The notes beneath the pieces are model-generated. The model was given only the letters and a program-made list of their open reading frames with translations, was not told the origin of the DNA and did no database searches. From positions 116,235,793 to 116,299,792 of the forward strand of contig CM041776.1 in the NCBI GenBank assembly GCA_023374045.1: DNA of 64,000 bases. The letters run 5' to 3'. Below are positions 22,265 to 64,000 of the stretch, one piece after another. The position numbers and the translations under genes are program-made. Origin of the DNA: Limonium bicolor (Eukaryota; Streptophyta; Magnoliopsida; Caryophyllales; Plumbaginaceae). The stretch's first letter is position 1. Every line of letters starts with the position of its first letter.

Positions 22265-22670
22265 TTTGGCTCGACCGACCTTACCCAAGGTCGGTCCATT
22301 CCAGGACATATTACCGTTTGAAAATTTTACCCCGACCGACCTTGCAAGTCCAGTCCCCAAGGTCAGTCCATTCCCGAGAGTTTTCCCCGTGGGAAATTTA
22401 AGCCCGACCGACCTTTCCAAGGTCGGTCCCAAGTTCGGTCGATTCCAGAGACCAATTCCCATACAAAATTCTAGGCATGACCGACCTTGTAAGTCCGGTC
22501 CTAAGGTCGGTCCTTTCCAGAGACTCAATCCTACTCAAAACACAAGCCAGACCGACCTTGCAAGTCCGGTCCCTATGGTCGGTCCATTCCAGAAACTCTT
22601 TCCGGCAGTGTAAACTGAGCTCGACCGACCTTGCAGGTCCGGTCCCTAAGGTCGGTCGGCTCCAGAACTT
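22265..22670. repeat. Hairpin array 'GACCGACCTT...AAGGTCGGTC', second copy
   Basis: Seven units of about 58-60 bases with the same dyad as at 13455, ending with the nearly identical unit 'gctcgaccgaccttgcaggt' found at 13739. Several arms are eroded (ggtcagtcc, agttcggtc). Confidence 0.9.
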
Positions 22671-24864
22671 TGTTTCTAAATTCCCATTTGACTCCAAACT
22701 TCACCTCATATATCCTAGTATGTTCTAACCTCATTTGGGCACTTCAAATACACCTTAAGCCCTCCACCAAACTCATTAAATCACTCACCAATACCCACCT
22801 TAGTCATTATGCATTTTCCTTATAATAATGCCAACACTTGTAATGTTTCTCACTAGGTTTCTAAGTGGTGGTTCATACTTAATATAACCACTATGCCAAA
22901 TGCTTCCTCACCACTATAACATCATATCCCAAGCATCTTTCACCATCTAAAACTCCTTTATGTAACTACTTAAAGTTTCTACACAAGTTTATGCCTTCTT
23001 CTACCAACACATTATTTTCCTTCCTACTTGTTTACCAATATTTGCCTAAGTCCTAACTACACAAGTATATCCCAAGTCATTCATTTGATTCCTAAATCCT
23101 CCATGATGGTGCCTAAGTCATTCTAACTTATAAAACACCTTAAACTCACCCTTCTTCATCAAAACTACTCCTAAAGTTTCTTAGTACTTCCTTAGTCATA
23201 AAATCTCCTTACACATCTTAAACACTTAGGTTCTTCGCTAAATTTTGCCATGGGTTCTTTAGTATATTATTACACCAAAACATTTAGTTTTTCACCATCA
23301 AATAGCTATCAACATTCAAACTCTCATTAAACCTCCTTAACACACATCATACACCAAAACTACACTACATCACAATATAGTTCATAAACTTAAATTGCTT
23401 GGCACTTAGGCCCTTAAATGACTTGGCTCTTAGGCCCTTAAATGCATAAATCTTAAACACTGAATTTCCTCAATATATATAGCCTTTGACCTGCAAATAC
23501 ACACAACAAGGCTCCCATTGCAATTTAAATATTCTTATAATTCACCTTGACATTCTTAATCTATCTACTTTTTCTCATTTGCTCCTTAGTCACAAGTTCA
23601 CAAGTACAGTCATTGTTTCTCCAAGGTTTTTATAACTCTTTCCCAATGTAAACTCTACACTAAACTCATCACCTATCTAAATCCCATCCCCTTAAACAAT
23701 AAAACACCTTAAGGTAAGTAATTTACCTTGTTCTTTTACAAGCTCACAAACTTTCCTCCTTAGCCTTTTCCCTTGAACAATCTCGGTCACCAACCAAGTT
23801 CTCCTTGCCAATGTTCTAACCAATATTCAATGACTCCAATGAGTACTAAACAACACACTAACCTTAAGGAATAAAACCTAGGTTAGAAATGTGTTTTAAG
23901 GTATTAAATTGATTGTTTTACCTTGGTTTCTTAAGACAAGCTTGGATATGAGTAAAGAAGGACCTCCTTTATCCTTTGGAGAGTAGAAACAAGCTAGAAC
24001 AAAGCATAAACATGAAGCCCATGAGTGATAATTTTCGGACATGTGAAGAAATGGTGGGAACTTCATTTTTCTTACATATTCTTTACCTTAAGAGAATGGA
24101 GAAGCTAATGGAGTCTCCAAGATTGAGTTTCCTCCTCTTATGGCGGTTTGCCTTGGCTCCAAAATGAGGCTCTTGAAGTTTTGAAAAGATAGAAAGGAAG
24201 AGCTTGAGCTAACTAAGAGATATATGTGCTTTGTTTTGATTTTGGAGCTTAAATGAGCAAGATGTGGGCAAAAGAAGATGGAGCTAGCATGGAGTTGTCT
24301 TCTTACGTGAAAGAGAAGAAAGAGAGCAAGAGAAATCGATGGAGAAGATGAAGAATGAAGAAAGGAGGAGAGAGGTGGTATAAATGAGATATTTTGATTC
24401 CTTAAAAAGCAAATAGTAACCACTTACTTTTCCGCTTTTTCTTCTAACATTAATTGGCTACTCTTGGTGACTCACACCCTTAGAAAACCTGCCCCCTCAT
24501 TAATTAGGCTAGTCATGGTCTTGTTTGACAAATTAATTAGACTTAATTGATTAAAGACTAAACTAGGCACTATTTGATTACTATTCACAAACTAGTGCAC
24601 ATAATTATGATATTTTTGATTTCCCATTGATTTAGACCTCCTAATGTGATACTAATTAGTACACAAGTTGATTAAGGGGTAATCATGGGCATTTAGCTAC
24701 TTAAAACCCCTTTCTAAGACAATTTTTAAAAAATGTGCTTTAAGAGTCCTTAAAGCACCATTTGTGTTTTAACTTGTTTTTGAGCTTGGTTTTCTTTGGT
24801 AATTGACTTAAAATGACCATTAGGATATTACTAAGGTCTTGGAATGATATTTGGGTGCTCACCC

Positions 24865-35560: not shown

Positions 35561-38026
35561 AAGGGGCTCAGAGATACAAGAGAATGTCATATGCTATAAT
35601 CAGCCAAGTAAATGGCGAACCATTGTCTAATGGTAAAAATGCATGAGCGGAAGCTATTGAAATAGCGGATGCCATGGAAACCAAGTTCGTAAGCAAACAC
35701 GAATATGGTGCACAGCAAGCGACCAATACATGTGAATAAATCACACAATAATATGGAGTTGATGAATAAAGATCGAAGACCAACTACTAAATTTACATTA
35801 TCTATTTTAAACAAGGAGGGATTTCCGACGGTTCCAATACCAATGATTTCACCATGAGTATTATCGTCGAAAGTGACTTTTCCTCCAAAGTGTTAAGAGA
35901 GAGTCGTGAAATTTTCAGGGTCTCCTGTCATATGTCGTGAGGATCCACTATCCAAAAACTAAGAGTCATTGTCCACGGTCTTCTCTCCCTGTAAAATAGG
36001 TAATGTTTAGACTTGGGAACCCAGGTCAACTTGGGTTCCCTCTTTGATGAGTAGGAGATATGATTACGTCGTGCTTTAGACATAGTATATATGCGTTGCA
36101 TATTCAAGGACAAATCACTACCAAGTTTGTGACATGAAGAGTGAATATGTTCATCGTATCCACAGTAACCACAAATCAACAATGAAGGGAGATGGACATA
36201 CTTCTTTTGCCAATGAAATTTGTTCTCAAATTTTTCTTTTTGAATTTTTCTTCGTCGGAGATCGTTTGGTTTTGACGCCATCTTAGGCAAGTTTACCTTA
36301 CCTTTGTTTTTCAGCCAGTGAGGGGGACTCGATGATGAGACTGAATCCAACTGCGCCTTTTTACGCGTGATGGTCAGAGATTTGATCTCCTTCTCGAGTT
36401 TGGTTTGCCTTTTATTTGACTCACAAAGTTTGTATTCAAAGAATTTTGGTTTTTTCGTGGCAGTAACCTCACGAACAAAGGTAATAGGCTTGAGAGATTT
36501 CTTGGGGAAATTAGAGCTATTTTTTTCTTTGAGATTTTTTTGTAGGGACATGACTTGGTCTTTCAAGGAACTGATAGTAGTGTGTGCATCTCGCAACTCG
36601 TTTTCGAGTTTTTTAACATTTTGCTCAGTTTTTTGGAGTTCGAGACGATCATTATTGACATGACCTTTCAGCACATGTATTTCTTCATAGAGTAATGCTA
36701 TTCTCTTCCTCTTCTATTAGATCGAATTCAGGGTGATTCAGATCTATGAAGTAAGTAGATAAATCTAAAGAAGGGACAGTGCATTAGTCTAAGAAGTTTG
36801 ACATTACCTTAGAAGAAGGAATCTTGTATACCTGATCTTTGTGATCCATGTGGCAGATTAATCCCAATGTTCCAGTCTCAAGTTCCTCCGAGTCAAAGTC
36901 TCCTCGTCCTGCATTGGCGACCAATGATGATTGTTCTCAGTCATCTTTCTTCTTTAATGGACAATTATTGGCACAGTGGCCCAGTTTTAGGCACTTAAAG
37001 CATACTCGATCTCCTGCTCTAGTATTTCCTTGTTGATTTCGGTTGTACGACTATATGACCGACTCTAATTTTCACCAAACCTGCTTGGTCAATTCTTGTC
37101 TCATCGATCGCGCATGAATCTCTTAAAGTTTTTGTCCAGCATGGCCATTTCCTCAAAGGTATTTGCTGAGCCTTCTACAATTATGTCATCGATCAGGGTG
37201 CCACGCAGCTGCTGAATTAGATCCTAATTGGTAGAAGTAGTCTCGTAGTAGAGAGAGTCATGCTGTAGAGCTGATGTCTGACTAGGGGTTTTCACCTGCA
37301 AGATCTGATTGACATTAGAGTAAGATACGGTGTGATTGGGGAGAGAAGTGTTACCTTTGTTTTTAATGTTCATCTTATATTTGTTGATGAACTGTAAGAA
37401 TAACCCCAAATCGGTTAAAGTCCATTTCTCTCAGCTTTTTGAAGCTTTTGTGGAGATGACACTTTCTGCTCATTCTTCCCCTAGGCTATCCAGGAACTTG
37501 TTGTTGATGTTTTCATTTGATTCTCCAATCTGAAGCTCTTTCATGGTAGCAGTGAGTTCAGTGAATCTGGCTAGCATGTCGCTGAGAGATTCTCCGGGTT
37601 TTCCTACGATGTTTTCGTAGTCCATCTTCAGTTCTTGAATTTTTGACTTTCGAAGTTCGGTGTTTCCTTCGTGAACAGCTCGAAGGTGATCCCAGATGTC
37701 TTTAGCCACTTTGATGTGATATACTCTTCTTCTTTTTGGTGTAGATCACTCGTACAGCTTGGGCATTTAGCTCGACACACTTTTGCTCTTCAGTAGTGTA
37801 AGAGCTTGGATCTTTGTCTTCAGGTACTGGGAAGTTTCCTTTGGTTACTACGGTCCAAAGTTGTTGGTTGAGCGACTGGAGGTGCGACTCCATTTAATTG
37901 TTCCACATGTTGTAGTTCGTGGAGGTTAACTTTGGGTTCTCCACTTGCATCCTATTATTATTGTTGGAGTTTGAGATTTCCACCATTCTAAGAGATTTGT
38001 CAGCTAACGCAGGCTCTGATACCACT
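35560..38026 (-). pseudogene. Ty1/copia gag-protease remnant
   Basis: On the minus strand from 37893: MESHLQSLNQQLWTVVTKG, then DIWDHLRAVHEGNTELRKSK and YENIVGKPGESLSDMLARFT (37709-37470), the usual UBN2-type copia gag. A zinc knuckle CFKCLKLGHCANNC follows near 37010-36965. Next comes a coiled coil (36674-36400, KKLENELRDAHTTISSLKDQ), a second Cys/His box CGYCGYDEHIHSSC, and the protease site FLDSGSSRHMTGD near 35950-35920. The start of the region before integrase is at 35870-35590 (GEIIGIGTVGNPSLFKIDNV). Integrase, RT and RNase H are absent. Stops interrupt it, e.g. TAG just before FLDSG. It inserted beside or into the gypsy remnants and lost its 3' half. Confidence 0.85.
38012..38026 (-). 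promoter_or_regulatory. Copia primer-binding site (initiator tRNA-Met)
   Basis: Minus strand AGTGGTATCAGAGCC, next to the LTR end TTTCA at 38027 and about 120 bases from the gag start at 37893. Confidence 0.75.
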
Positions 38027-45739: not shown

Positions 45740-46735
45740 GACTTATGACGGGCCCCAACTAGACCTCTTGATATCTAGCTCTAGGACTTATGACGGGCCT
45801 AGAATACAAATGAAAGTGCGAGGACTTAGGACGTGCCTCTATTAGACCTCTTGACATCTAATCGTAGGACTTATGACGAGCCTATAATGCGATTGAAAGT
45901 ACGAAGACTTATGACGAGCCTTAACTAGACCTCTTGATATCTAGCTATAGGACTTATGACGAGACTATAATACTAACAATTAGATTGATTTGGCAGCACG
46001 AGGACTTATGACGAGCCTCAACTAAACCACTTGACGTCTAGCTATAGGACTTATGACGAGCCTATAATGCAATTGAAAGTACGAGGACTTATGACGAGCC
46101 TCGACTAGACCTCTTGATATCAAGCTATAGGACTTATGACGAGCCTATAATACTAACAATTAGATTGGTTTGGGTGCACGAGGACTTATGACGAGCCTCA
46201 ACTAAACCTCTTGACGTCTAGCTATAGGACTTATGACGAGCCTATAATGCAATTGAAAGTACGAGGACTTATGACGAGCCTCAACTAGACCTCTTGATAT
46301 CTAGCTATAGAACTTATGACGAGCATATAATACTAACAATTAGATTGGTTTGGGTGCACGAGGACTTATGACGAGCCTCAACTAAACCTCTTGACGTCTA
46401 GCTATAGGACTTATGAGGAGCCTATAATGCAATTGAAAGTATGAGGACTTATGACGAGCCTCAACTAGACCTCTTGATATCTAGCTATAGGACTTATGAC
46501 GAGCCTATAATACTAACAATTAGATTGGTTTGGGTGCACAAGGACTTATAACGAGCCTCAACTAAACCTCTTGACGTCTAGCTATAGGACTTATGATGAG
46601 CCTATAATGCAATTGAAAGTACGAGGACTTATGACGAGCCTCAACTAGACCTCTTGATATCTAGCTATAGGACTTATGACGAGCCTATAATACTAACAAT
46701 TTGATTGGTTTTAGGGTGCACAAGGGCTTAGGAGT
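45740..46735 (+). repeat. 180-bp higher-order tandem repeat 'ggacttatgacgagcct'
   Basis: Monomers of about 43-47 bases (GACTTATGACGAGCCT plus 'ctagacctcttgatatctagctata') combine into a 180-base higher-order unit. It repeats with exact 180-base register at least four times between 46000 and 46720 (e.g. 'actaaacctcttgacgtctagc' at 46201, 46381 and 46561). Confidence 0.95.
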
Positions 46736-46789
46736 GCCTCAACTGGACCTCTTGACATCCAATCCTAGGGCTTATGACGGGCCTAGAAT

Positions 46790-47040
46790 GTAATTTGGAT
46801 ACCATACTAGTAGCGCAATAGATGCCTAGCGGGTGTAAAACAATAATGCGACCACACTAGTAGCGCAATAGCTGCCTAGTGGGTGTAAAACGATAATGCG
46901 ACCGCACTAGTAGCGCAATAGCTGCCTAGCGGGAGTAAAACGAAAATGTGACTGCACTAGTAGCACAATAGCTGCCTAGTGGGTGTAAAACGATAATACG
47001 ACCGCACTAGTAGTGCAATAGCTGCCTAGCGGGTTTGAAA
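46790..47040 (+). repeat. ~61-bp tandem repeat 'gcactagtagcgcaatagctgcctagcgggtgt'
   Basis: Four full units and one partial of 58-62 bases with few changes. Confidence 0.9.
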
Positions 47041-48831: not shown

Positions 48832-51800
48832 TGAAATACCCCGTAATTAAAAATAGTGATTAATTAGGCTAATACATATTTTAGAAGCTTAATTAAGTCT
48901 AAATAAATATTAGGGAACAAATGCCGAAGAAAACGGATCCTTAAAACAGATTTCAAACACAAATGAACCTTAAAGCGTGTTTTTCGAGGAAACCCGGAAA
49001 ACGTGACTTTAAGCCGGTCAAATACACTCGTAACAATTTTGGTCCACCAAATAGTCATTAATAAACAGTAGTGAAGGTCTAGAACCAATAAAATCAATAA
49101 ATCGAGAAAATAGTAAAAACTATCAAAAAACAGGAAGTTGTGGGGTAAAAGCATAAATAAACCAAACTAGTGTGTCCACTAGTGTAAAGACAATTTTAAA
49201 ACCCACATGGGGGCTGTGTGTGAGCCGGCCGATTTGAGCCCCTCTCTCGCACTCTCTTATTTTAATTGTCCCTAATTTGCTAAAGAACAACATAATAAAG
49301 TAAAGCAAAAACAAAAAGTAACTTACCTTTTACCTTCACTCTCTCCTACTCTCTCATTTCCCCACCTCAGTCACGTACAGCACCCTCCTCCCTCACTCTC
49401 TATTTCTCTTCTTCTTCCTTAGGCAATAACAATGGAGAAGTGAAGAAACCCACAAAACCCCACTTCTCTCCTCTTGTTAACTACCCAAATCTCCTCCAAA
49501 AATTACAAAACTTGTACCATTGGAATCCTCTCATCAAGGAGAACACATTCCTCCTTTCAAAATCCAAAAACACTCATTTTCATCTCCATGGGTGTGCTGC
49601 ATTTGGAGCTTGAAGACCACCATTAGAACCACCTTCATCTCCTTGTCATTTTGAGGTAAAAATAATCTTGAAAACTTACCTTTTTCTAGCCCTTGGTGGC
49701 AAAACGAAAATTCAAACTAAACCCTTGTTTGGTGCCTTGTGTTCAAGCCGATTTTGGCATCCTTGGAGAGTGAGAAATCTTGTTCTTGAGCTACTCTAAC
49801 CTTCACCTACTCCTTTGCAAGGTAATATATTTCCTAAACCCTAAAATGTGCCTTAAGCTCTAAAGATGGTTAAGGGTTAGTTTTTGTATTGAAATGTGTA
49901 TACCAATGGGCTGTAGATTTAGAGAATTGAAATTCTATAATCCGTGGGAAGAGAGGAAAAGAGGAAAGAAAGATGAAAGGAGAAGGAAGGAAGAACTAAC
50001 AAGAGAACAAGGTAAATTGCATTCTCTTGTGTAGATTATAATGTATTGTGTAACAGTTTTTGGTAGTTTAAAATGTGTATTGTAAAATGGTAATGAGTAG
50101 TAGTGTAATGTGGAAGAAGAACCAAACTATTTTGAAGCTTAAAAGACATTTTCAAACTTGTTGAAACCTAGAGGGAATTAGATGTTGTGTGTAGGAAATT
50201 TAATGAGTGTTTAATGTTTAGTAGTTGTGTTGGAGAGCTCGGTATATTGTGTTGTTTATAAACAGGTGAATTGGGAAACAATGTGTGAATAGAACATGTG
50301 GTGAACTTAAGAACTAGAAACTAGGTGGGAAATTACTTTGAAAACAGATTTTTATAAGAATCTTGGTAGTGGGTAGGTTAGGAGAGATGGATAATGGATT
50401 ATAAGCCTTAGGAATAACATTAGAAGAGGGAGCTATAGAAGAATAAAGTGAGAATCAAAATCTGTAGCATAACTATGCTAGGAAGAAACAATGTAAGTGT
50501 TGTAATGAAATTTGGGAAGAACAAGTGTGTAAATTAGTGTAGAAATGAATAAGGAGTTAATGGATGAACTAAGGTGGATTAGAAGGTCTAATTAGTGTGA
50601 AAACATGTGGGATTAAGTGTAGGAACAATGCGGAAGTAATGGGTAAGAAGAACGATTGAAAACAGAAATAAAAATGCAATTACTGGACTTGACCGACCTT
50701 GGGACCGGACTTGCAAGGTCGGTCGAGCCCAGATTTACAAAGACGGAAAGCTATTGGAATGGACCGACCTTGCGACCGGACTTGCAAGGTCGGTCGGCCT
50801 AAAAATTTTCCGTAATGAAACCCACTGGAATGGACCAACCTTGGGACCGAACTTGTACAAGGTCGGTCGAGTCCAGAATGTCAAAACCAAAACATACTGT
50901 AACGGACCGACCTTGGGATCGGACTTGCAAGGTCGGTCGGGCCTAAAAGTTTCCAGCATATTACCCAACTGAATTCGACCGACCTTGGGTCCGACCATGG
51001 GTAAGGTGGGTCGAGTCACACAAAAAAAATTATTATTATTATATTATTTTATTATTATATTATTATTATTTTATTTTTATTATTATATATATTAGATTAT
51101 AGATATATATATGTATACCCACATATACATATGTACATATATGTAGAAGTACATCATTGTTAAGGAAGTAAACTTGAAGTATGAAATGGGTTTCATAACC
51201 ACTTAGGACTTGTAAGAATTAGTAAGTATGTCTAAGGAAAAGTAATAGAGTAAGAGTTACATAAATAATAGTTATTAACCATACAACTCCATGTATGTTA
51301 TAGGACTTGATTTGTGAACACAGAAGGAAAGTCGGTTCGAGTACAATGGTATGAACTTCTCATGCCCCGTATGCTACCTTGGTTACTCTGATTTGTGTGC
51401 TGTGTGCTAATTGATCACCAAATAAGATAAACACACGAATCTGAACTATTATGCTTACTCGTGATATTGTGATATTGTTCCTTGTTTGGATATTATCTTA
51501 AAATCATAGTTTGTATAATTCATGAAATGTATGGATGATAATAAGTGTGTGTATGTTTGATGTACTTTGTGATGACCGAATAATATTGTGATTGGACTTC
51601 TAACTAATTCCTAACAAGCTAACCAATCTAACATAATAAATTGGTAAATTGGAATGAGTAGAAGTCCGATATAGTTTCGGCCACACGTGAGGAGGCGGAG
51701 ACACAAGAGGTTGGATCCAATTCCTGGCTTTTAATCTTTTCCACGACCCAAACCCCTTAAATGGGTAGCATCATGGATTAGTGAGCCACCTAAAGCCTGG

Positions 51801-52678
51801 TGGTGGGAAGGTCTAGTCCCTGCCCGGAGGTCATACCGACTTAACATGAGTAATAGTAAGTAAATAAGAGTAAGTAAATGAGAATGGGAAAGTAAGTAAG
51901 TAAAGTATGGATGTGTTTGAGTAAGTATTGTGTAATGAGTAAAAGAGTAATAAACATCCGATTAACCCGGATGTGTAATTGGCTAACCCTTGAGAAGGTA
52001 AGTACTGTGAATGCTATTGTATTACTGTTGTCTTATGTCTTGAAATGTGTATGGATGTGTTATGTATGTAAGGCATGTATGCATGTCTAAAATGAACCGC
52101 ATGTTTAGTCGACCTTAAATAGTCGGCGTGCCCTTGTTAGCACGCGGTATATGCGAAGTTTATATGCAGCTTCTTGCTGAGCCCCTTGAGGCACCATTTT
52201 TAATATTTCCAGGTACGTGTGAAGGGTGAAGACTTGGTGAGAACAAGATGGTTTCATTTTGGATGTAATTAATGAATTGTGAAAGGTGTCCCAAGTTGTA
52301 CATGGCTATAGGCCTTTTTGTTTAGCCGGTGTACCATGGGGTACACCCTTTTTGGATATGGTGGAATCATGATTGGTATAGATGAGTAGATTGTGTGAAC
52401 TCATATTTTTGGAAGCTAGTGAAGGGATGTAATTAAATACACTTAGATACTCGGTAATCACTTTGTAAGTATTTGATATTCGGTATTTGGTAAGTAATGT
52501 GGTAGCTCGGTATTATTTAGACATTAGACCGTTACTGTATGTAGTGCAAGCCTTGCTAGCCGTATGGGTGGTTAGCGGCATTGTATCACCCGCCGTAGTA
52601 GAAGTATTTCTGCTGCGAGTACTAGGATGAATGGGACAATTAGACGGTAAGTAAGGGATTAGCGGTAGGGGTGTTACA
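48832..52678 (+). mobile_element. 5' LTR of the AlkB-carrying chromovirus (3847 bp)
   Basis: TGAAATACCCCGTAATTAA to GGTAGGGGTGTTACA. A candidate pyrimidine-rich leader (49330-49430) is followed by 'aacaatggagaagtgaag' (49427). Contains a hairpin array, an (ATT)n tract at 51027-51075 and 'atatata' repeats. Compared with the 3' LTR it lacks the MITE and about 50 bases present at 60288-60340. Open frames inside are not conserved proteins. Confidence 0.93.
50685..51020. repeat. Hairpin array in 5' LTR
   Basis: Five units of about 64 bases, GACCGACCTTGGGACCGGAC followed by TTGCAAGGTCGGTC; the stem is GACCGACCTT/AAGGTCGGTC. It is the inverse orientation of the arrays at 13455 and 22265, as expected from the opposite LTR orientation. 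Confidence 0.92.
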
Positions 52679-52683
52679 AAAAG

Positions 52684-52694
52684 TGGTATCAGAG
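52684..52694 (+). promoter_or_regulatory. Primer-binding site (initiator tRNA-Met)
   Basis: TGGTATCAGAG, five bases after the LTR. Downstream 'attagttacgcta' is a decayed form of the palindrome at 348-369. Confidence 0.85.
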
Positions 52695-53570
52695 ATTAGT
52701 TACGCTAGGATGGCCTAAATTACCGAGCATAGGGATTACCGAGTTAGGATTATAACCTTTTTAAAACGGAAACTTAGGAACCTAACTAGGAATTACCGTT
52801 GTTAACAACGGATACACTTGATGTTCTTATGAATGATACCTTGCTTAAAATTCGAGACCCAATGGTTACGTGTTACAAGCCTAATGCGAATGTTAAATGT
52901 TCAGATGTCAGGACGAGGTAGAGGCCGACCTAGAGGGGAGACATCTGATGGACCAGGCGCGCAGACGATAACAGAGATCGTCGCCGCCACGGTAGCACAG
53001 ATGCTACCTCAAGTAATCACGGCAACGCAACAAAATCAACAAAACCAACAAACACAAGCGGGACCAATCCCTCCCCCTCCACCCAAAGAAGCAAACTGGG
53101 TAAAAGCAGTAGCGGAACTCCGACCTCCATGTTTCAGAGGCGAGAGTGATCCGGCTAAGTTGGAAGCCAACATCTCCGAGATGGAGACGACATTTCAAAC
53201 CCTCGAAGCTCCTGCTGGAGTTCGAGTTAGAGTAGCAGCTTACTACCTCAAAGACGCTGCCATGAATTGGTGGAAACTAATCAAGAATGAGCATGTCAAC
53301 GACCCCACATTCGACTGGGAATCCTTCTCATCTCTCCTCTGATCCAAATACTATCCAGAACTTGTCAAAACCAAGAAAAGACTAGAGCTTGATGCTTTGA
53401 GAATGACAGACAAGATGTCTGTGGATGAGTACTACCGCACCTTCACTTCCATCCTTCGCCTTCTACCCGACCTTGGGTACACCGGCCAGGTGTTGGTCAA
53501 TCGCTTATATGGCGGTCTGAGCCATCGTCTTCGGTATGGCATGGGCTACACCAGATTTACCTCCCTTCAG

Positions 53571-53622
53571 GTAAACTTTTATCTTTCTAATTAAGAATCC
53601 TGGCTAATACCTGAAACTTCAG
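53571..53622 (+). other. Putative gag intron 1 (52 nt)
   Basis: GTAAAC...CTTCAG, with a branch-like GGCTAAT 20 bases before the acceptor. Exon frame is phase 0 on both sides (TSLQ | ECYHAASRVE). The intervening sequence has an in-frame stop. Short for a plant intron. Confidence 0.55.
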
Positions 53623-53906
53623 GAGTGCTATCACGCGGCATCTCGCGTTGAGATCACTTGCCAATTGAGGGATGAAGAAACCGCGCTTAACCGCAAGACC
53701 AATAACAAGAACACCAGTGCTGAGGAGCAGAACCAGGGGAAGAGCTGGAAAAAGAAAGAAGAAGGGGAATTTCTTTCAGCAATCCCAAAAGAATTTCCCA
53801 AGTGAGAGCAGTGCCCATACTGAGAAGGGCAAACCAGTTGAGCTTCTTCAGCTAGGTTCTTCTGCGCCGGTGGCTGCGAAGCCACTGAGATCACACCCAC
53901 CTAAGG

Positions 53907-53989
53907 GTAAACTTCGAATCTAAATTCATATTTGCATAAGTATCATACCTAGTATTTCCGCACAAAGGTGCTAACACTCTAAGCCTTAG
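53907..53989 (+). other. Putative gag intron 2 (83 nt)
   Basis: GTAAAC...CCTTAG with TGCTAAC 18-24 bases before the acceptor, a close match to the branch consensus. Joining g (53906) to gt (53990) makes Gly and leads in frame into SGSGFTKNY and the zinc knuckle. Confidence 0.65.
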
Positions 53990-54499
53990 GTTCTGGCTCC
54001 GGTTTCACCAAGAACTACTCCGACGGCCGCAGCTATGTATGCAGAAGATGCAACCAAGACCATCCCGGTAAGGATTGCCAAGGGAGAGAAATCCGGTGCT
54101 ACAACTCTCAGAAACTGGGACATAGAGCTAATATGTGCCCAGAAAATGCCAAGCCCAAGGGAACTTCCAGAGCTACAAGTAGAGGGAAGGCAAGAAGGTT
54201 GCATCTGGCGATGCACCAGCCCAGTAGGCGCCGCAGGGACAGGGATCCCGAGGTCCTCAGAGGGGCGCACCCCTGAGGCAGCCTGTCTTGCACGTTATTG
54301 ACCGTGACGGGTCCGGTTCTAAGTCCGGCCTAGGTAATTAATATGAACCTTGAATCCTTGTGAAGCATGTCTAAGTATTGGAGTAATTGTTTGAGTGAAT
54401 GCATGTGTAAATGAATTGAAGTATGTATTGAGCATGAAATGAAGTAGTTGAGACTAGTACTCACCATAGATGAAATTCATAACCATAGGTAGTTTTAAT

Positions 54500-55230
54500 A
54501 TCTGCTACCCAATACCGTCAACCCAAATCAAGGAGAGACCGACATCACCACTTACCACTACTCCAACGAGCAGTGTCAGGTCATCTGACCAGGTATGATT
54601 TTATTAAAGGGATATCTAACACCCGAAGCCCAAATTTTGATCATCCAACGATGCAACGAATTAGGAGCGGGTCCAGGAGGATTTTATACACCCGAATTCC
54701 CCGATTGAGCGAAGATGAAGCTGAAGATGATGTGCTTGGGAAAAGATTAGAACCCTTATACCAAGGCATACCAAGAGACACGGATGCAAATGGAGCGACA
54801 CCACCGACGATACCCCCAGAACTTCAGACGCTTGTTACACAAGCAGTAGAACTTGCACAACGATGCGAACATGATCCGATCCCCGCACTTGAACCGGACC
54901 TTTGTATCGTCATCTTATATGAGAAAGAAGGATGACTTGGGTTGAACCAAGACAAGGACGAGACAGCAGAATCTCTTGAACGAGGAGTGCCGCGTGTGTT
55001 CTTGGTCCATTGGTGATGACGCCATATTCTTGTATAGCGAGCAGAAGCGTGTGGACCTCACAGAGAAACTGGTATTGAGATCAGGAGATGTCCTAATCAT
55101 GGGTGGAAACTCTAGGATGCTGTATCACGGGATCAACAAGATCAAGTTGAATACGGCACCACCGGCAATAATCAATGCCACACACATGAAACCAGGATGC
55201 CTGAACCGTACCTTTAGGAAGTATTAAATT
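54500..55230 (+). pseudogene. AlkB-like 2-oxoglutarate/Fe(II) dioxygenase inside the retrotransposon
   Basis: Reads in three blocks. Block 1 (54500-54770): PGMILLKGYLTPEAQILIIQ, then NELGAGPGGFYTPEF and AKMKLKMMCLGKD, with stops at 54586, 54706 and 54748. Block 2 (another frame): DANGATPPTIPPELQTLV, LEPDLCIVILYEKEG, a stop at 54933, LGLNQDKDETAESLERGVP. Block 3 (back in the first frame): SIGDDAIFLYSEQKRVDLTE, LRSGDVLIMGGNSRMLYHGI, KPGCLNRTFRKY, TAA at 55228. This is the complete order of plant ALKBH1-like proteins: GPGGFY, MMCLGK, HQDKDE, GDxLIxGGxSRxxxHG, LNxTFR. Such enzymes remove methyl groups from nucleic-acid bases. The first iron-binding His is Asn (54945-54947); Asp (54951), the second His (55126) and the 2OG-binding Arg (55216) remain. 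Two compensating frameshifts and four stops make it inactive. Confidence 0.9.
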
Positions 55231-55296
55231 CATAGTATCCTGTAATGTATTAGTAACGTGTATTAGAGACACGGTATGTATGATGGTTGGTTTATC

Positions 55297-55302
55297 AATA
55301 AA
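55297..55302 (+). terminator. AATAAA poly(A)-like signal after the AlkB stop
   Basis: AATAAA lies 67 bases past the AlkB stop codon and ahead of the protease. It could end an AlkB message early. Single hexamer, so weak evidence alone. Confidence 0.35.
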
Positions 55303-55368
55303 GAGCAGTGTTGAGTTAAATTCCACTTGTGTCCACCATCATTACTCATAAACTTGTGAATCCAATAG

Positions 55369-58190
55369 GTTGTGGACTCGGTACCGAAGGTAGCATGAGT
55401 ATCCTCACCGAAGCACAAGCCGGTAAAAGTGGCACCATCTAACAAGAACATTCCCAGTGAACGGCATTGAAGCCTCAGTGTTATTCGACTCTGGTACCTC
55501 TCACACCTTCGTATCACCATCTTTTGTGAAGAGGTTGGGGCTAGGTGCGGATGAGCTACCGAATTTCTTGGTTACTCTCCCATCGAAGGAGCGAGTACAC
55601 TGTACTAAGTATTACAAATCAGCCACGATCCAAATCAAGGGCGAAACGTTTCCCATCTCCTTCATCGAGTTTAATGGGTTGGGATTCGACTTAATCATCG
55701 GGATGAACTGGTTGGAGCGGCACAAGGGACGTATCCTCTGCGCCGAGCATAGATTGCTGCTCAAGGGTCCTTCTGGGGAGATCCGAGAGAGCCCGAGACC
55801 TTCGACAGTCATCTCCGCTATGGCTATGTACCGGGAGCTTAGGAAGGGCAAAGAAGTGTATTTGTGTTATGTACAAGACCTGAAGAGAGACCTAGAGTTT
55901 AGTGATGATGTACCAATCGTATCTGAATTCCCTAAGGAGCTACCCGGCATGCCACCTCAGAGAGCGGGAGAATTTGAGATTGACCTCTTGCCTGGTACCG
56001 GTCCCATTGCTAGGGCACCGTACCGCATGGCACCTGTAGAAATGACAGAGCTAAAAGTGCAGTTGCGCGATTTACTAGACAAAGGGTTCATACGCCCGAG
56101 CCTATCACCCTGGGGAGCACCGGTCCTCTTTGTGAAGAAGAAGGACGGTAGTCTCCGACTTTGTATTGACTACCGCGAGCTGAATGCGGTTACAGTCAAG
56201 AATAAATACCCATTGCCACGCATCTATGACTTATTCGACCAGCTGAAAGGAGCCTCAGTCTTCTCCAAGATCGACCTCCGTTCTGGGTATCATCAGATTG
56301 CTATCAGAGAGCAAGACATAGAGAAAACGGCATTCTGTACCAGATATGGCCACTACGAATTCACCGTCATGCCATTCGGTTTGTCAAACGCACCAGCAAA
56401 ATTCTTGGACCTAATGAATCGACTATTCAGCAAGCAGTTGGACACCTCAGTTGTTGTCTTCATCGAAGACATACTTGTATACTCAAAATCAACAGAAGAG
56501 CATGAAATTCATTTGAGGAAAGTACTCGAGACACTGCGCGAGAACCAGCTGTATGCGAAGTTCTCCAAATGCGAGTTCTGGCTAGATCAGGTATCATTCC
56601 TCGGTCATGTCATCTCGAGCGTAGGTATCTCAGTTGACCCTTCTAAGATTGAAGCTATACGATCATGTCCTAGACCCAAGACTGTTACCGACATTCGGAG
56701 CTTTCTTGGTCTAGCCGGTTACTACTGGAGATGTGTAAAGGACTTCTTGAAAGTTGCTAAGCCCATGACTACACTGATGAAGAAAGATGCACCGTTTGTA
56801 TGGACAGACAAGTGTGAAGTATCATATCAGAGCCTAAAGGACTCATTGACCTCAGCGCTCATCCTTACTCTTCCAGAGGGCACAGAGGGATTTGAGGTGT
56901 ATTGTGTTGCATCCAGCAAGGGAATGGGATGCGTACTCATGCAGCATGGCAAGGTTGTAGCTTACGCCTCCCGCCAGCTGAAAAAGCATGAGGAGAATTA
57001 CCCGACTCATGACTTAGAGTTAGGAGCCATTGTCTTCGCCTTGAAGATATGATGACACTATCTCTATGGGGTAAGCATTACCATCTACTCCGACCATAAG
57101 AGCTTACAGTATGTATTCACGCAGAAAGAATTGAACTTGAGACAGAGAAGGTGGATGGAGTTTCTCTCAGACTATGACATCGACCTACAATATAAGGAAG
57201 GGAAGGCAAACGTGGTAGCCAACGCCCTGAGTCGTCGAGCACACTCGCTCCATTCGCTACTCGCTTCTTCTAGCTTGGTTGACGAGGTGCGAGACGCTCA
57301 GTTGAGCGACCCTTACACGACCGAAATCAGACAGAAGATCACCGATGGTACATTCGAGAAGAAGAAGTATGACTTCAAGCTACATGAAGATGGTCTGATT
57401 CGGCTGAATGGCAGGTTATGCGTTCCCCGAAGCAATGCTGAGATGAAGGATCGCATCTTGCGAGGGTCACACAGTTCTACATTGTCAGTCCATCCAGGAG
57501 CCTCCAGGATGTACAAAGACATGAAGAGGTACTTTTGGTGGTCCGGAATGAAATCAGATGTGACAGAGTACGTATTGAGATGCTTAACATGCTAGAAAGT
57601 GAAGTTTGAACATCGTAGACCGGGCGGAATGGTACAATCGATCCCAGTTCCGGAGTGGAAATTTCACGATATCTCCAAGGATTTTGTTGTAGGACTCCCA
57701 CCTGCTAGGGGAGGACTCAACATGATTTGGGTTGTAGTTGATCGCCTCACCAAGGTTGCCCGATTCATACCGATGAAGGACACTTGGAAGGTAGTGAATC
57801 TCGCAGAGCTATTCGACAAGGAGATTATCAGACACCACGGAGTCCCGAAGACCATAGTATCTGACCGCGACACCAGATTTCTTTCGAGATACTGGAGAGC
57901 TACACGGGAAGCGCTGGGTACAGAGTTAAAGCTGAGTACCGCCTTCCATCCTCAGGACCGACGGTCAGACAGAAAGGACCATCCAGACACTGGAGGACAT
58001 GCTTAGAGCATGTGCCTTAGACTTTCAGGGGAGTTGGTTAGACAAGCTTCATCTTATCGAGTTTTCGTACAATAATAGCTATCATGCTTCGATTAAGATG
58101 TCGCCTTTCCAAGCTCTTTACGGTAGACCTTGCCGTACACCCTTGTGTTGGGATGAGTCAAGCGAAGCGGTCATCATAGGACCGGAGATA
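55369..58190 (+). pseudogene. Chromovirus pol: protease, RT, RNase H, integrase
   Basis: Protease [10 protein letters not shown] (55480s) is intact. RT runs about 55915-56560: [56 protein letters not shown]. Its catalytic box reads FIEDILVYS (56460s) in place of FIDD, losing one metal-binding Asp. RNase [14 protein letters not shown] has Val for the first catalytic Asp, then two TGA stops at 57050-57055. The HHCC integrase finger (HSSTLSVHPGASR...CLTC) ends at TAG 57593-57595. The integrase core keeps VVVDRLTK and IVSDRDTRF; a one-base insertion near 57957 shifts the frame before the Glu region. Near 58188 about 130 residues expected between GPEI and the chromodomain linker are deleted. The start at 55369 assumes splicing; a one-base shift near 55438 precedes [12 protein letters not shown]. 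Confidence 0.93.
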
Positions 58191-58191
58191 T

Positions 58192-58398
58192 GTCCTAGAG
58201 CCTGAGAGACTATCCATTGAGCCAACCATGAGATATGTCGAGACCCCTGTGAGAATCCTTGATAGGAAGACCAGAGACACTCGCCATAAGTCCAAACGAA
58301 TGGTGAAAGTTCTATGGTCAAACCATGATGTCGAAGAAGCGACATGGGAATTAGAAGACGCCATGAAGGTGAAGTACCCACAGTTATTCATAGACTAG
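58192..58398 (+). pseudogene. Chromodomain C-terminus of the integrase
   Basis: Begins [20 protein letters not shown], then RILDRKTRDTRHKSKRMVKV and LWSNHDVEEATWELEDAMKV, ending YPQLFID and TAG. This is the reduced chromodomain of Tekay/Del chromoviruses, which targets integration to chromatin. It follows a deletion that removed the integrase C-terminal subdomain, and its frame is not joined to 57999-58205. Confidence 0.8.
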
Positions 58399-58809: not shown

Positions 58810-58822
58810 AAGGGGGGTAGAT
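58810..58822 (+). promoter_or_regulatory. Polypurine tract
   Basis: AAGGGGGGTAGAT directly before the 3' LTR start TGAAATACCCC. Confidence 0.8.
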
Positions 58823-60714
58823 TGAAATACCCCGTAATTAAACATAGTGATTAATTAGGCTAATACATATTTTAGAAGCTTATCTAAGTCTATGTAAATA
58901 TTAGGGAACAAATCCCGAAGAAAACGGATCCTTAAAACGGATTAAAAACACAAATGATCCTTAAAGCGCATTTTTTGAGGAAACCAGGAAAACACGACTT
59001 TAAGAGGGTCAAATAGACTCGTAACAATTTTGGTCAACCAAATAGTCATTAATAAACAGTAGTGAAGGTCTAGAACCAATAAAATCAATAAAACGAGAAA
59101 ATAGTAAAAACTGTCAAAAACGGGAAGTTGTGGGGTAAAAACATAAATAAACCAAACTAGTGTGTCCACTATTGCAAATACAATTTTAAAACTCACATGG
59201 GGGCTGTGTGTGAGCCGGCCGATTTGAGCCCCTCTCTCTCACACTCTTATTTTAATTGTCCCTAATTTGCTAAAGGACAACATAATAAATTAAAGCAAAA
59301 ACAAAAAGTAACTTACCTTTTACCTTCTCTTCTTACTCTCTCATTTCCCCACTTCACTCATGTACAGCACCCTCCTCCCTTACTCTCTATTTCTCTTCTT
59401 CTTCCTTGGGCGATAACAATGGAGAAGTGAAAAAACCCACACAAACCCCACTTCTCCTCTTGTTAACTACCCAAATCTCCTCCAAAAATTACAAAACTTG
59501 TACCATTGGAATCCTCTCATCAAGGAGAACACATTCCTCCTTTCAAAATCCGAAAACACTCATTTTCATCTCCATGGGTGTACTGCATTTTGAGCTTGAA
59601 GACCACCATTAGAACCACCTTCATCTCCTTGTCATTTTGAGGTAAAAATAATCTTGAAAACTTACCTTTTTCTAGCACTTGGTGGCAAAACGAAAATCAA
59701 ACTAAACCCTTGTTTGGTGCCTTGTGTTCTAGCCGATTTTGGCATCCTTGGAGAGTGAGAAATCTTGTTCTTGAGCAACTCTAAGCTTCACCTACTCCTT
59801 TGCAAGGTAATATATTTCCTAAACCCTAAAATGTGCCTTAAGCTCTAAAAATGGTTAAGGGTTAGTTTTTGTATTGAAATGTGGATACCAATGGGCTGTA
59901 GATTTAGAGAATTGAAGTTCTATAATCCGTGGGAAGAGAGGAAAAGAGGAAAGAAAGAAGAAAGGAGAAGGAAGGATGAACTAATAAGAGAACAAGGTAA
60001 ATTGCATTCACTTGTGTAGATTATAATGTATTGTGTAACAGTTTTTTGTAGTTTAAAATGTGTATTGTAAAATGGTAATGAGTAGTAGTGTAATGTGGAA
60101 GAAGAACCAAACTGTTTTGAAGCTTAAAAGACATTTTAAAACTTGTTGAAACCTAGAGGGAATTAGATGTTGTGTGTAGGAAATTTAATGAGTGTTTGAT
60201 GTTTAGTTGTTGTGTTGGAGAGCTCGGTATATTGTGTTGTTTATAAACAGGTGAATTGGGTAACAATGTGTGAATAGAACATGTGGTGAGAATGTAAAAA
60301 TATAGGGGAGACCATGTCAAATTTTACCTAGAAACTAGAGAACTTAAGAACTAGAAACTAGGTGGGAAATTACTTTGAAAACAGATTTTTATAAGGAGCT
60401 TGGTAGTGGGTAGGTTAGGAGAGATGGATAATGCATTATAAGCCTTATGAATAACATTAGAAGAGGGAGCTATAGAAGAAGAAAGTGAGAATCAAAATCT
60501 GTAGCATAACTATGCTAGGAAGAAACAATGTAAGTGTTGTAATGAAATTTGGGAAGAACAAGTGTGTAAATTAGTGTAGAAATGAGTAAGGAGTTAATGG
60601 ATGAACTAAGGTGGATTAGAAGGTCTAAATAGTGTGAAAACATGGGATTAAGTGTAGGAACAATGAGGAAGTAATGGGTAAGAAGAAGGATTGAAAACAG
60701 AAATAAAAATGCAA

Positions 60715-61050
60715 TTATTGGACTGGACCGACCTTGGGACCGGACTTGCAAGGTCGGTCAAGCCCAGATTTACATAGACGGAAAGCTACTAGAATGGACC
60801 GACCTTGCGACCGGACTTGCAAGGTCGGTTGGCCTAAAAATTTCCCGTAATGAAACCCACTGGAATGAACCGACCTTGGGACCGAACTTGTACAAGGTCG
60901 GTCGAGTCCAGAATGTCGAAACCAAAACACACTGTAACGGACCGACCTTGAGACCGGCTTGCAAGGTCGGTCGGGCCTGAAATTTTCCAGCGTATTACCC
61001 TACTGACTTCGACCAACCTTGGGTCCGACCCTGGGTAAGGTCGGTCGAGT
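60715..61050. repeat. Hairpin array in 3' LTR
   Basis: Five units matching 50685-51020, with independent changes such as ggtcggttg for ggtcggtcgg and a lost base in 'gagaccggcttg'. Confidence 0.92.
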
Positions 61051-61078
61051 CATACAAAAAAAAATATTATTATTATTA

Positions 61079-61488
61079 GGGAAAATTCACGATATACCCC
61101 TGTTTTCTTTCGTAATTCACAATATACCCCTGTGATTTTCGTAATTCAACTTTAAACATGCTTAAATGTTGTCCAAAATTGATGAAACTTTACATGGACG
61201 ATGCTAATGTGTTATATTTTGGTCCAATATCAAATTTGAAGTTTTTTAAGCTCACATGTGAACTGTGGGATCCAATGAATATGTGATTGTTCATTGGGCC
61301 CCATAGGTCACATGCGAGCTTTAAAAACTTCAAATTTGAGATTGGACCAAAATATAACACTTTTGCATCGTCCATGTAAAGTTTCATCAATTTTGGACAA
61401 CATTTAAGCATGTTTAAAGTTGAATTACTAAAACCACAGGGGTATATTATGAATTATGAAAGAAAAGGGGTATCTCGTGAATTTTCCC
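61079..61488. mobile_element. Foldback MITE (410 bp), probably Mutator-like
   Basis: GGGAAAATTCACGATATACC at one end and its complement (TCTCGTGAATTTTCCC) at the other. The whole element is one inverted repeat with arms of about 195 bases and only a short centre near 61283. TTATTATTA on both sides (61070-61078, 61489-61497) would be a 9-bp target duplication, typical of Mutator-like elements, though it sits in an (ATT)n tract. Absent at the same place in the 5' LTR (51027-51075), so it inserted after the retrotransposon. No transposase. Confidence 0.9.
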
Positions 61489-62690
61489 TTATTATTATTA
61501 TAATAAGTATATATAGATATATATATGTATACCCACATATACATATGTACATATATATAGAAGTGCATCATTCTTAAGTAAGGAAATAAACTTGAAGTAT
61601 GAAATGGGCTTCATAACCACTTAGGAGTTGTAAGAATTAGTAAGTATGTCTAAGAAAAAGTAATGGAGTAAGAGTTACATAAATAATAGTTATTAACCAT
61701 ACAACTCCATGTATGTTATAGGACTTGATTTGTGAACACCGAAGGAAAGTTGGTTCGAGTACAACGGAGAACGGTATGAACTTCTCATGCCCCGTATGCT
61801 ACCTTGGTTACTCTGATTTGTGTGATGTGTGCTAATTGATCACCAAATAAGATAAACGCATAAATCGAAACTATTATGCTTACTCGTGATATTGTGATAT
61901 TGTTCCTTGTTTGGATAGTATCTTTAAATCATAGTTTGTATAATTCATGAAATGTATGGATGATAATGAGTGTGTGTATGTTTGATGTACTTTGTCGTGA
62001 CCGAATAATATTGTGATTGGACTTCTAACTAATTCCTAACAAGCTAACCAATCTAACATAATAAATTGGTAAATTGGAATGAGTAGAAGTCCGATATAGT
62101 TTCGGCCACGCGTGAGGAGGCGGAGAGACAAGAGGTTGGATCCAATTCCTGGTTTTTAATCTTTTCCACGGCCCAAACCCCTTAAATGGGTAGCATCCTG
62201 GATTAGTGAGCCACCTAAAGCCCGGTGGTGGGATGGTGTAGTCCCTGCCCGGAGGTCATACCGTCTTAACATGAGTAATAGTAAGTAAGTAAGAGTAAGT
62301 AAATGAGAATGAAAAAGTAAGTAATAAAGTATGGATGTGTTTGAGTAAGTATTGTGTAATGAGTAAAAGAGTAATAAACATCCGATTTACCCGGATGTGT
62401 AATTGGCTAACCCTTGAGAAGGTATGTACTGTGGATGCTATTGTATTACTGTTGCCTTATGTATTGAAATGTGTATGGATATGTTATGTATGTAAAGCAT
62501 GTATGCATGTCTAAAATGAACCGCATGTTTAGTCGACCTCAAATAGTCGGCGTGCCCTTGTTAGCACGCTGTATATGCGAAGTTTATATGCAGCTTCTTG
62601 CTGAGCCCCTTTGGGCACCATTTTTAATATATCCAGGTATGCGTGAAGGGTGAAGACTTGGTGAGAACAAGATGGTTTCTTTTTTGATGT

Positions 62691-64000
62691 TGTAACACCC
62701 CTACCATTAATACTATCATTACCGTCCAATCTCCTCGTACTTCCAGATTCACGCAGCGGATACATACTTACTTACAATGGGTGATACAATGCCGTTAGCC
62801 ACCCACGTGACTAACAAGGCTACTACTATTACATACAGCATCGGTCTGATGGACCGGAATCCCGAGTACTACACATCTACAATACCTATACCATTCTCCA
62901 GTTCAATACTACTATATTCCGTTCAACACTTTACTCCTTTACAATACCATACCATACAATATACATAACCGAGTTTACTAGGTTCCGAATACAAATACAA
63001 TACTTCTTCCAAGTTCCTATGTACTCATTAAGAGTCTATGATTACCCATTCCTCACAACTATTTACTTCCCAAGTACAAGGGTGTACCACTTGATACACT
63101 TCTACATTCTACTTCTACTATCCGAGTGTAGCCACCGGTCTCTTACCTTGACACACCCGCTTCGGGTACCTGCACACTAAAAAATGTTCCCTGAAGGGGT
63201 CAGCTTTCGCCGAGCATGATAACCGCATACCCCGCGTACTAGTGAGGGTACGCCGACCACTTGGTCGAATACATGCGGTTCGTTTTCATACTAACATACA
63301 AGCATACATGCTCTTATACATGATATTACAATACATTACGCATAACATACACACATACATACACTTCATTACATACAGGAAGTACAACATGAACCATCCA
63401 ATACATACTTACCTTTTCCGGATTACACATTCACACTACATACACAATATACAATACTTGTTAGCTTCATTGGTCCACCCGGGTTAATCGGGTGGAGATT
63501 ACTTTTTTACTCGTTACTTCATACATACACATACATACTCATACATACTTACGGATCCGTACTTACTTACTCTTACTCTTACTCAAGTTAAGTCGTCGGG
63601 ACCTCCGGCCCTGGGGACTACTCCGTCCCACCTCCGGGATTTACTTGACTCACCAAACCGGGATGCTACCCATTTAAGGGATTTGGGCCGCGGACCAGTT
63701 TAAGAGTCAAGAATTGCAGCCAACCTCTTGTGACTCCGCATCCTCACGCGTGGCCGAAGCTATATCGCACTTTTACTCACTTAAGTTAGGAGTTAGATAG
63801 TTAGGAATTAGCACAAGTCAACATCCAAGCCACAATAATACAATGCACATATACACATACATACGAGGTACGATACATTACACAAGTACAATGCGAGGTT
63901 CGAATACCATTCATCATCATTCATATATTTCATGAATTCTACAAACTAGTGCTCAAGACAATAAATATCAAGCGCAACATAAGTCAAGCACGGGTAAGTG
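62691..64000 (-). mobile_element. Inverted gypsy LTR, start only
   Basis: TGTAACACCCCTACCATTAA is the reverse complement of the LTR end seen at 52678. The block 'cgttagccacccacgtgactaacaaggctact' matches the antisense of 52547-52577 and 11805-11830, and 63226-63270 carries the 'agcacgcgg...gtcggcgt' block inverted. Related to but distinct from the LTR it interrupts. The preceding bases GATGT (62686-62690) would be the target duplication if the partner copy lies beyond the window. Confidence 0.8.

What the first reader, a model, noticed from the sequence alone, without database searches (positions are those of the whole stretch)
54500..55230. AlkB-family dioxygenase gene between gag and pol of a plant LTR retrotransposon
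The window's best candidate for a new system. The sequence shows, in family order, GPGGFYTPEF, MMCLGK, LGLNQDKDE, GDVLIMGGNSR, YHGI and LNRTFRKY, inside a chromovirus bounded by LTRs. AlkB enzymes erase methyl groups from RNA or DNA bases, and some plant RNA viruses carry one. A retrotransposon copy could protect or activate its RNA by removing base methylation, or repair its nucleic acid. The present copy is dead, but the domain is complete end to end, which argues that it was kept for some time rather than picked up as a random fragment.
Basis: partly seen in the sequence, partly recalled or inferred. Interest (0 to 1): 0.95.

Follow-up and report, generated by a model that had tools for sequence, protein, structure and literature searches.

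The report
AlkB gene inside a plant retrotransposon
A decayed plant jumping gene carries, in what looks like an intron between its coat gene and its copying-enzyme gene, the remains of a complete enzyme gene of a type that removes methyl marks from DNA or RNA; a different jumping gene in orchids is already known to have done something similar.

Summary
An AlkB-family (2OG-FeII_Oxy_2) coding block, 54489-55227, lies between gag and pol of a chromodomain Ty3/gypsy element (LTRs 48832-52678 and 58823-62690). It aligns end to end with an intact homologue (66.5% identity), but this copy is dead: 4 stops, 3 frame breaks, two cofactor residues lost. It is nearest to rice OsALKBH1 and bacterial AlkB, not ALKBH5. 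It forms a strongly supported clade with four unannotated open-frame proteins (two whole, two cut short), away from the plant host genes sampled. None of the 120 listed pol relatives has it. AT-rich intron-like sequence lies on both sides, with two splice acceptors of equal phase, so a Gag-AlkB fusion by alternative splicing is the likeliest expression mode (inferred). Against selection in this branch: AlkB lesions exceed the LTR clock (5-7 seen, 1.5-1.9 expected, P 0.003-0.02 by reference) while pol fits it, so AlkB was probably failing before this copy jumped. Precedent: Phalaenopsis Ogre-like elements carry a functional ALKBH5-like gene (PMC9289625); here element clade, AlkB subfamily and position differ. 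Copy number, host species, and whether the four relatives lie in transposons could not be tested: the genome search did not complete.

The parts
48832..52678 (+). 5' LTR (TG...CA)
52684..52694 (+). primer binding site TGGTATCAGAG (match to initiator tRNA-Met is from recall)
52905..53570 (+). gag exon 1 (broken; Retrotrans_gag PF03732 on 53343-53594)
   Evidence: matched by 8 of 120 pol relatives
53623..53906 (+). putative gag exon 2, between two AT-rich GT..AG segments
   Evidence: sites, composition; not matched on this strand by any of the 120 pol relatives
53990..54333 (+). putative gag exon 3 with zinc knuckle and linker, ending at a GT donor; frame broken inside
54334..54488 (+). AT-rich (GC 0.32) segment with GT..AG ends: intron before the AlkB exon (inferred)
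54470..54481 (+). left copy of an 11-of-12 direct repeat flanking the AlkB block
54489..55227 (+). AlkB coding block, decayed (4 stops, 3 frame breaks against P0002; His of HxD is Asn, first Arg of RxxxxxR is Cys); TAA at 55225-55227
55223..55234 (+). right copy of the 11-of-12 direct repeat
55228..55368 (+). AT-rich (GC 0.34) segment with AATAAA at 55297, ending in the AG acceptor of pol
55369..58398 (+). pol: protease, RT, RNase H, integrase parts, chromodomain (broken)
58810..58821 (+). polypurine tract AAGGGGGGTAGA
58823..62690 (+). 3' LTR, cut short at 62690 by an inverted LTR end

Best explanation
This is a dead copy of a chromodomain Ty3/gypsy (chromovirus) retrotransposon whose lineage acquired a plant AlkB gene of the OsALKBH1/ALKBH1C-D type. 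The gene sits as a unit inside a pre-existing gag-pol intron. Shown: position, completeness, intron-like composition on both sides, absence from the 120 listed pol relatives, and a clade with open-frame relatives. Inferred: when intact, the gag donor at 54333 was joined either to the pol acceptor (55368), giving Gag-Pol, or to the AlkB acceptor (54488), giving a Gag-AlkB protein that ends at AlkB's own stop; unspliced RNA served as genome. Gag would carry the enzyme to the element's own RNA, cDNA or primer, where it would oxidatively remove methyl groups (m6A, m1A, m3C or 6mA; substrate not known), either to escape a host RNA mark or to repair alkylation. In this branch the gene had probably begun to fail before the copy inserted.
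For: PF13532 above cut-off; end-to-end homology; fold model of the intact relative P0001 is confidently AlkB, nearest OsALKBH1, TM 0.94. Clade of window + P0001, P0002, P0003, P0019 at 100/99 on a long stem (0.86). The segment 54334-55368 matches 0 of 120 listed pol relatives, the protease segment 115 of 120. Coding parts have GC 0.46-0.56, the four intervening or flanking segments 0.31-0.35. Both acceptors are AG|GT and share one phase; P0002 reads LG-PFDICYP where the window reads G-SFNICYP. Taking out 54334-55368 leaves about 103 residues between zinc knuckle and protease motif against 45-101 (median 49) in the 20 of 120 relatives in which both motifs were found. Introns or alternative splicing are reported in other plant LTR elements: EVADE, BARE1, Ogre (PMC12786077, passages).
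Against: No transcript and no second element was seen. The four relatives come from unnamed contigs without known context, and none of the contig lengths of P0001-P0003 recurs among the 120 listed pol hits. Lesion excess in AlkB (5-7 seen, 1.5-1.9 expected, P 0.003-0.02 by reference protein) while pol fits the clock says that AlkB was dispensable for the last jump or supplied in trans. In this broken copy the gag frame that fits the splice phase at 54333 is not the frame of the zinc knuckle, and the pol exon changes frame before the protease, so the phase argument rests on the two acceptors agreeing with each other (1 in 3 by chance). The gag segment of 52 bases is shorter than plant introns usually are (recalled). 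The AATAAA could be chance.
Confidence: 0.45

Rival explanations
1. One-off or short-lived passenger: a host AlkB gene copy was captured by a single element lineage, gave no benefit, and decayed while being carried along.
For: More AlkB lesions than the LTR clock allows, against a clock-like pol; two cofactor residues lost. LTR elements of rice and sorghum are reported to hold captured genes (PMC3726574, title and start of abstract in a search listing).
Against: Still complete end to end and 66.5% identical to P0001; shares a stretch (YSNE.C.VI) with P0002 that the host rows of the alignment do not have; clade with four open-frame proteins.
Confidence: 0.35
2. A processed host gene copy inserted by retroposition into this one element after or shortly before it integrated, so that AlkB was never part of a transposon lineage.
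For: An 11-of-12 base direct repeat (54470-54481, 55223-55234) flanks the block like a target-site duplication; 11 of 2000 shuffles and 16 of 3000 random window pairs do as well. The coding block has no intron inside.
Against: No run of six or more A in 55228-55440. The block begins at an acceptor that shares its phase with the pol acceptor. It is far from host genes (P0020, the best host-like protein's table, 50.4%) and groups with unannotated proteins. The repeat was noticed after the fact, the longest exact repeat of the wider flanks (9 bases) is reached by 89 of 500 shuffles, and an insertion into an ancestor would leave such a repeat too.
Confidence: 0.12
3. P0001-P0003 and P0019 are ordinary host genes of a poorly annotated plant group, and the element simply took its copy from such a host; the long stem is phylogenetic distance, not life in a transposon. 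(Overlaps with the other rivals.)
For: Their contigs are unknown; a host-like relative (P0020) is also a single open frame on unannotated contigs, so a single frame is no sign of a transposon.
Against: No protein with a plant name falls in the clade among the rows of the tree (65 of the 133 fetched AlkB proteins, 57 of them); P0001 stands for four member sequences clustered at 90% identity.
Confidence: 0.3
4. The enzyme removed m1A58 from the initiator tRNA that primes reverse transcription.
For: Primer site fits tRNA-iMet (recall); human ALKBH1 erases tRNA m1A58 (stated in PMC7475180, passage).
Against: In HIV-1 m1A58 is needed as the plus-strand stop, so erasing it would hurt (PMC13191261, passages); this family is nearer to bacterial AlkB than to human ALKBH1.
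Confidence: 0.04

Closest known systems
Gypsy_Pa_2799 family of Phalaenopsis orchids (PMC9289625; abstract, introduction, methods, results and discussion read)
   Same: Ty3/gypsy LTR retrotransposon of a plant that carries an AlkB-superfamily gene; long LTRs
   Different: Orchid: Tat/Ogre-like, two RNase H domains, tRNA-Arg primer, gag-pol in one frame without intron, AlkB in a separate second ORF of 565 aa, ALKBH5-like, enzyme active in vitro. Here: chromodomain element, other primer site, intron-like gag-pol gap, AlkB between gag and pol, OsALKBH1-type, dead copy
OsALKBH1 (5XEG, 5XOI) and Arabidopsis ALKBH1C/ALKBH1D type host genes
   Same: Whole domain, fold (P0001 model TM 0.94 to 5XOI), motifs
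   Different: Many host proteins have longer N-terminal parts, and differ at many sites; the window's clade stands apart on a stem of 0.86
AlkB domains of plant RNA viruses (Alphaflexiviridae, Betaflexiviridae, Closteroviridae; as cited in PMC9289625)
   Same: AlkB acquired by a mobile genetic element of plants
   Different: No reverse transcription; not compared by sequence here
Plant LTR elements with introns or alternatively spliced gag (Ogre, EVADE, BARE1; passages of PMC12786077)
   Same: Intron or splice choice separates Gag from Gag-Pol
   Different: No enzyme exon in the intron is mentioned in the passages seen

Membership tests
AlkB / 2OG-FeII_Oxy_2 (PF13532) | Profile match above gathering cut-off | tested here: met
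   57.4 bits against 31.2 on 54946-55227
AlkB / 2OG-FeII_Oxy_2 (PF13532) | Iron ligands HxD...H | tested here: not met
   In this copy NQD...H; P0001, P0002, P0019 have HQD...H. Homology stands, activity of this copy does not
AlkB / 2OG-FeII_Oxy_2 (PF13532) | 2OG-binding RxxxxxR | tested here: not met
   Window CLNRTFR; P0001, P0002, P0019 RLNLTFR; P0003 ends before it
Plant ALKBH1B-D / OsALKBH1 group | Nearest by sequence and fold to OsALKBH1 | tested here: met
   P0001 to 5xeg E 2.5e-71; fold TM 0.94. Tested on the relative, not on the broken copy
Plant ALKBH1B-D / OsALKBH1 group | Falls inside the clade of host genes | tested here: inconclusive
   Own clade 100/99, attachment among hosts unresolved
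ALKBH5-like m6A erasers of the orchid elements | Closest to ALKBH5 | tested here: not met
   ALKBH5 structures stand far down the fold list, TM 0.53-0.57, and are not among the 21 sequence hits
Chromovirus (Ty3/gypsy with chromodomain) | LTRs, PBS, PPT, gag, PR-RT-RH-INT order, chromodomain | tested here: met
   chromodomain 25.0 bits, just under its 25.1 cut-off, and integrase core 26.2, under 32.6
Tekay/Del clade of chromoviruses | RT groups with Tekay references | not tested
   No reference elements at hand; the label would be from recall
Gypsy_Pa_2799 family | Tat/Ogre type, AlkB ORF apart from gag-pol | tested here: not met
   Chromodomain, AlkB between gag and pol
Accessory gene under selection in a transposon lineage | AlkB in many copies with dN/dS under 1 | not testable with these tools
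   Own-genome search unanswered 15 times; no DNA of relatives

The most novel reading that the evidence does not exclude
A second, independent AlkB capture by plant LTR retrotransposons: a chromovirus lineage present in several plant genomes keeps an OsALKBH1-type demethylase as an alternative exon in its gag-pol intron and makes a Gag-AlkB protein that demethylates the packaged nucleic acid, convergent with the ALKBH5-type ORF of orchid Ogre-like elements.
Probability: 0.35. Interest if true: 0.8.

Novelty: new variant of a known kind. Interest (0 to 1): 0.55.

Why it matters
Whether hosts mark retrotransposon nucleic acid by methylation, and whether elements fight back, rests in plants, in the papers seen here, on ONSEN/ALKBH9B and one orchid lineage. 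A second capture from another AlkB subfamily, by another element clade and at another site, would make convergence a testable claim. It would also show a way to attach an enzyme to Gag by splice choice.

Tried and rejected
Tried without result: the search for related loci in viral contigs with an AlkB alignment (244 stretches, none confirmed) and with the pol frame (3 stretches, none), in genome contigs with four AlkB proteins (170 stretches, none); metagenome contigs had no scans left to use. tblastn of AlkB in plasmids gave 3 records, two Leptolyngbya and one Methylobacterium. No Rfam match at gathering threshold and no tRNA in the window. The attempt to link P0001-P0003 to pol proteins by equal contig length failed. 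The pol search did not name the host: among hits covering 97% or more of the query the best identity is 60% (Cuscuta), others from melon, Asteraceae, elm, Dendrobium. One search returned zeros because of a wrong program option and was redone. A paper search for the rice structure codes gave no paper on that protein among the five listed. Exon counts of host ALKBH1 genes were sought but the passages give no usable number for this subfamily, so 'intronless, hence from cDNA' is not argued. The middle piece of AlkB, compared alone, hardly discriminates (49-53% to the four relatives, up to 49% to the ten others shown).

Rejected: chance motif match (E 1e-66); human-ALKBH1-type or ALKBH5-type enzyme; a bacterial contaminant (LTRs on both sides, plant relatives). 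Set low: tRNA m1A58 eraser.

Full report
What is there. The element has LTRs 48832-52678 and 58823-62690, a primer site at 52684 and a purine tract at 58810. Between them lie gag, then protease-RT-RNase H in one 541-codon frame, integrase pieces and a chromodomain match just under its cut-off. The LTRs differ by K2P 0.051 over 3423 aligned bases, with 14 gap events; at a recalled rate of 1.3e-8 that is about 2 million years, the species being unknown. The AlkB block is 54489-55227. Its C-terminal open piece passes the PF13532 cut-off. Intact P0001 matches it from first to last residue in one frame, the middle third being out of frame. With frame breaks allowed the identity is 66.5% to P0001, 59.6% to P0002, 59.7% to P0019 and 50.4% to the host-like P0020.

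The copy is dead. Stops and frame breaks counted by frame-tolerant alignment: 4 and 3 against P0002 (740 bases), 3 and 2 against P0001 (630) and P0019 (585), 4 and 2 against P0020 (723). The His of HxD is Asn and the first Arg of RxxxxxR is Cys; the second His is kept. Pol: 3 and 2 against P0250 (2592 bases), 3 and 0 against P0153 (2337), 0 and 1 against P0235 (1649). Substitution and frameshift rates from the LTR pair predict 1.85, 1.57, 1.46 and 1.81 AlkB lesions for the four references, where 7, 5, 5 and 6 are seen (P 0.003, 0.02, 0.02, 0.01). For pol they predict 6.6, 6.0 and 4.2, where 5, 3 and 1 are seen (P of as many or more 0.79, 0.94, 0.98). The share of AlkB among 12 lesions (P0002 and P0250) has P=0.007. 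So pol was probably intact when this copy inserted and AlkB probably was not. This counts against selection on AlkB in the most recent branch. It assumes that LTR and internal DNA mutate alike.

What kind of AlkB. The intact relative P0001 finds rice OsALKBH1 first in the PDB by sequence (5xeg, E 2.5e-71), then E. coli AlkB (2.5e-22), then ALKBH1 (2.2e-11). Its AlphaFold2 model (mean pLDDT 94.2, pTM 0.91) matches OsALKBH1 (TM 0.93-0.94), then E. coli AlkB (0.80-0.83), with mammalian ALKBH1 (0.54-0.72) and ALKBH5 (0.53-0.57) behind (first 50 of 1384 rows). The trees used 65 of the 133 AlkB proteins fetched. In the 58-row tree (8 of 66 rows dropped for long branches or redundancy) the window groups with P0001 and P0003 at 100/97, and with P0002 and P0019 too at 100/99, on a stem of 0.86; the attachment among host genes is unresolved. 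In the 66-row quick tree the same clade had 91. The window's row held only the N- and C-terminal pieces; the middle piece, compared apart, hardly discriminates.

Are the four relatives in transposons? Not known. P0001 and P0002 hold the whole domain; P0003 ends before the last motif; P0019 lacks the first residues. They come from ENA contigs of 26,621, 26,561 and 9,956 bases and from a Logan contig of 1,151 bases, without names. In favour: they lie apart from the named host proteins used in the tree, P0001 stands for four members clustered at 90%, and P0002 shares with the window an N-terminal stretch that the host rows do not have. Against: P0020, a host-like gene, is also a single frame on unannotated contigs, and no contig length of P0001-P0003 recurs in the pol list.

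Where it sits. Of the 120 listed pol relatives (7988 were scored), 0 match 54334-55368, 115 match the protease segment, 32 the zinc-knuckle segment, 8 gag exon 1, and one has a short match to the exon 2 segment, on the wrong strand. In the 20 relatives in which both motifs were found by pattern, 45-101 residues (median 49) separate zinc knuckle and protease motif. In the window it is about 1344 bases; leaving out 54334-55368 gives about 103 residues. Coding segments have GC 0.46-0.56. The segments 53571-53622, 53907-53989 and 54334-54488 start with GT, end with AG and have GC 0.31-0.35; 55228-55368 has GC 0.34 and ends with AG. The acceptors at 54488 and 55368 are both AG|GT and share one phase, giving G-SFNICYP and G-CGLGTEGSM. 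In this broken copy the gag frame that fits (SGL-G) is not the zinc-knuckle frame, and pol changes frame before the protease, so only the agreement of the two acceptors counts. AATAAA lies at 55297. An 11-of-12 direct repeat hugs the AlkB block (54470-54481, 55223-55234); 11 of 2000 shuffles and 16 of 3000 random window pairs reach this. Without the block the two AT-rich flanks would make one intron of about 280 bases. My reading is that AlkB came in as a unit into an existing gag-pol intron and became an alternative, perhaps terminal, exon. The repeat was found post hoc, and no splicing was observed.

Mechanism. Likeliest, by inference: splice choice makes Gag-Pol or Gag-AlkB, and Gag brings the demethylase to the packaged RNA or cDNA. 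The substrate is open. Many host relatives are named DNA N6-methyladenine demethylase in databases (names), and bacterial AlkB repairs m1A and m3C (recall). Demethylation of ONSEN RNA by ALKBH9B promotes its mobilisation (PMC12786077, passage), which gives a reason why an element could gain. For m1A58 of the primer tRNA the published role argues the other way (PMC13191261, passages).

Known or new. Alvarado-Marchena and others (PMC9289625; abstract, introduction, methods, results and discussion read) screened 121 angiosperm genomes and found the 2-ODD domain in LTR elements only in two Phalaenopsis genomes, in Ogre-like elements, as an ALKBH5-like ORF with in vitro m6A demethylase activity. 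They note that low-copy families escape their method. Searches for other reports listed no title or abstract on AlkB in a chromovirus; the library holds open-licence papers only. So this is a new variant of a known kind, with the caveat that retention in a lineage is not shown.

Limits. The host genome could not be searched (15 unanswered requests, listed in Tried and rejected), so copy number, host donor gene and selection are untested. Species unknown.

Noticed in passing
window 62691-64000: The 3' LTR is cut at 62690 by the reverse complement of an LTR end (TGTAACACCCC): an LTR of a related family (75-82% identical in the pieces compared), in opposite orientation and probably running off the window.
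   Followed up: partly
window 13458-15894 and 22264-24847: A pair of LTR-like direct repeats containing a tandem unit of about 72 bases that also occurs inverted inside the LTRs of the AlkB element (50681-51017, 60719-60988); seven pol relatives searched against the window gave no match between them at E 1e-5.
   Followed up: partly
window 17062-18398 and 45819-46795: Large tandem arrays with units of 208 and 180 bases, 92-93% matches.
   Followed up: no
window 10805-11773 (-): 323-codon open frame that looks like a CACTA-type transposase region (recalled, not searched).
   Followed up: no
window 35931-36713 (-): 261-codon frame with coiled-coil and zinc-knuckle-like sequence, resembling a copia/SIRE gag (recalled, not searched).
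   Followed up: no
window 53571-53622 and 53907-53989: Two further AT-rich GT..AG segments inside gag of the same element (52 and 83 bases); plant LTR elements generally lack introns (PMC12786077, passage).
   Followed up: partly
P0199, P0232: Plant-like chromovirus pol proteins filed under Corynebacterium sp. MC-10 and Labilibacter sediminis: probable plant contamination of bacterial assemblies.
   Followed up: no
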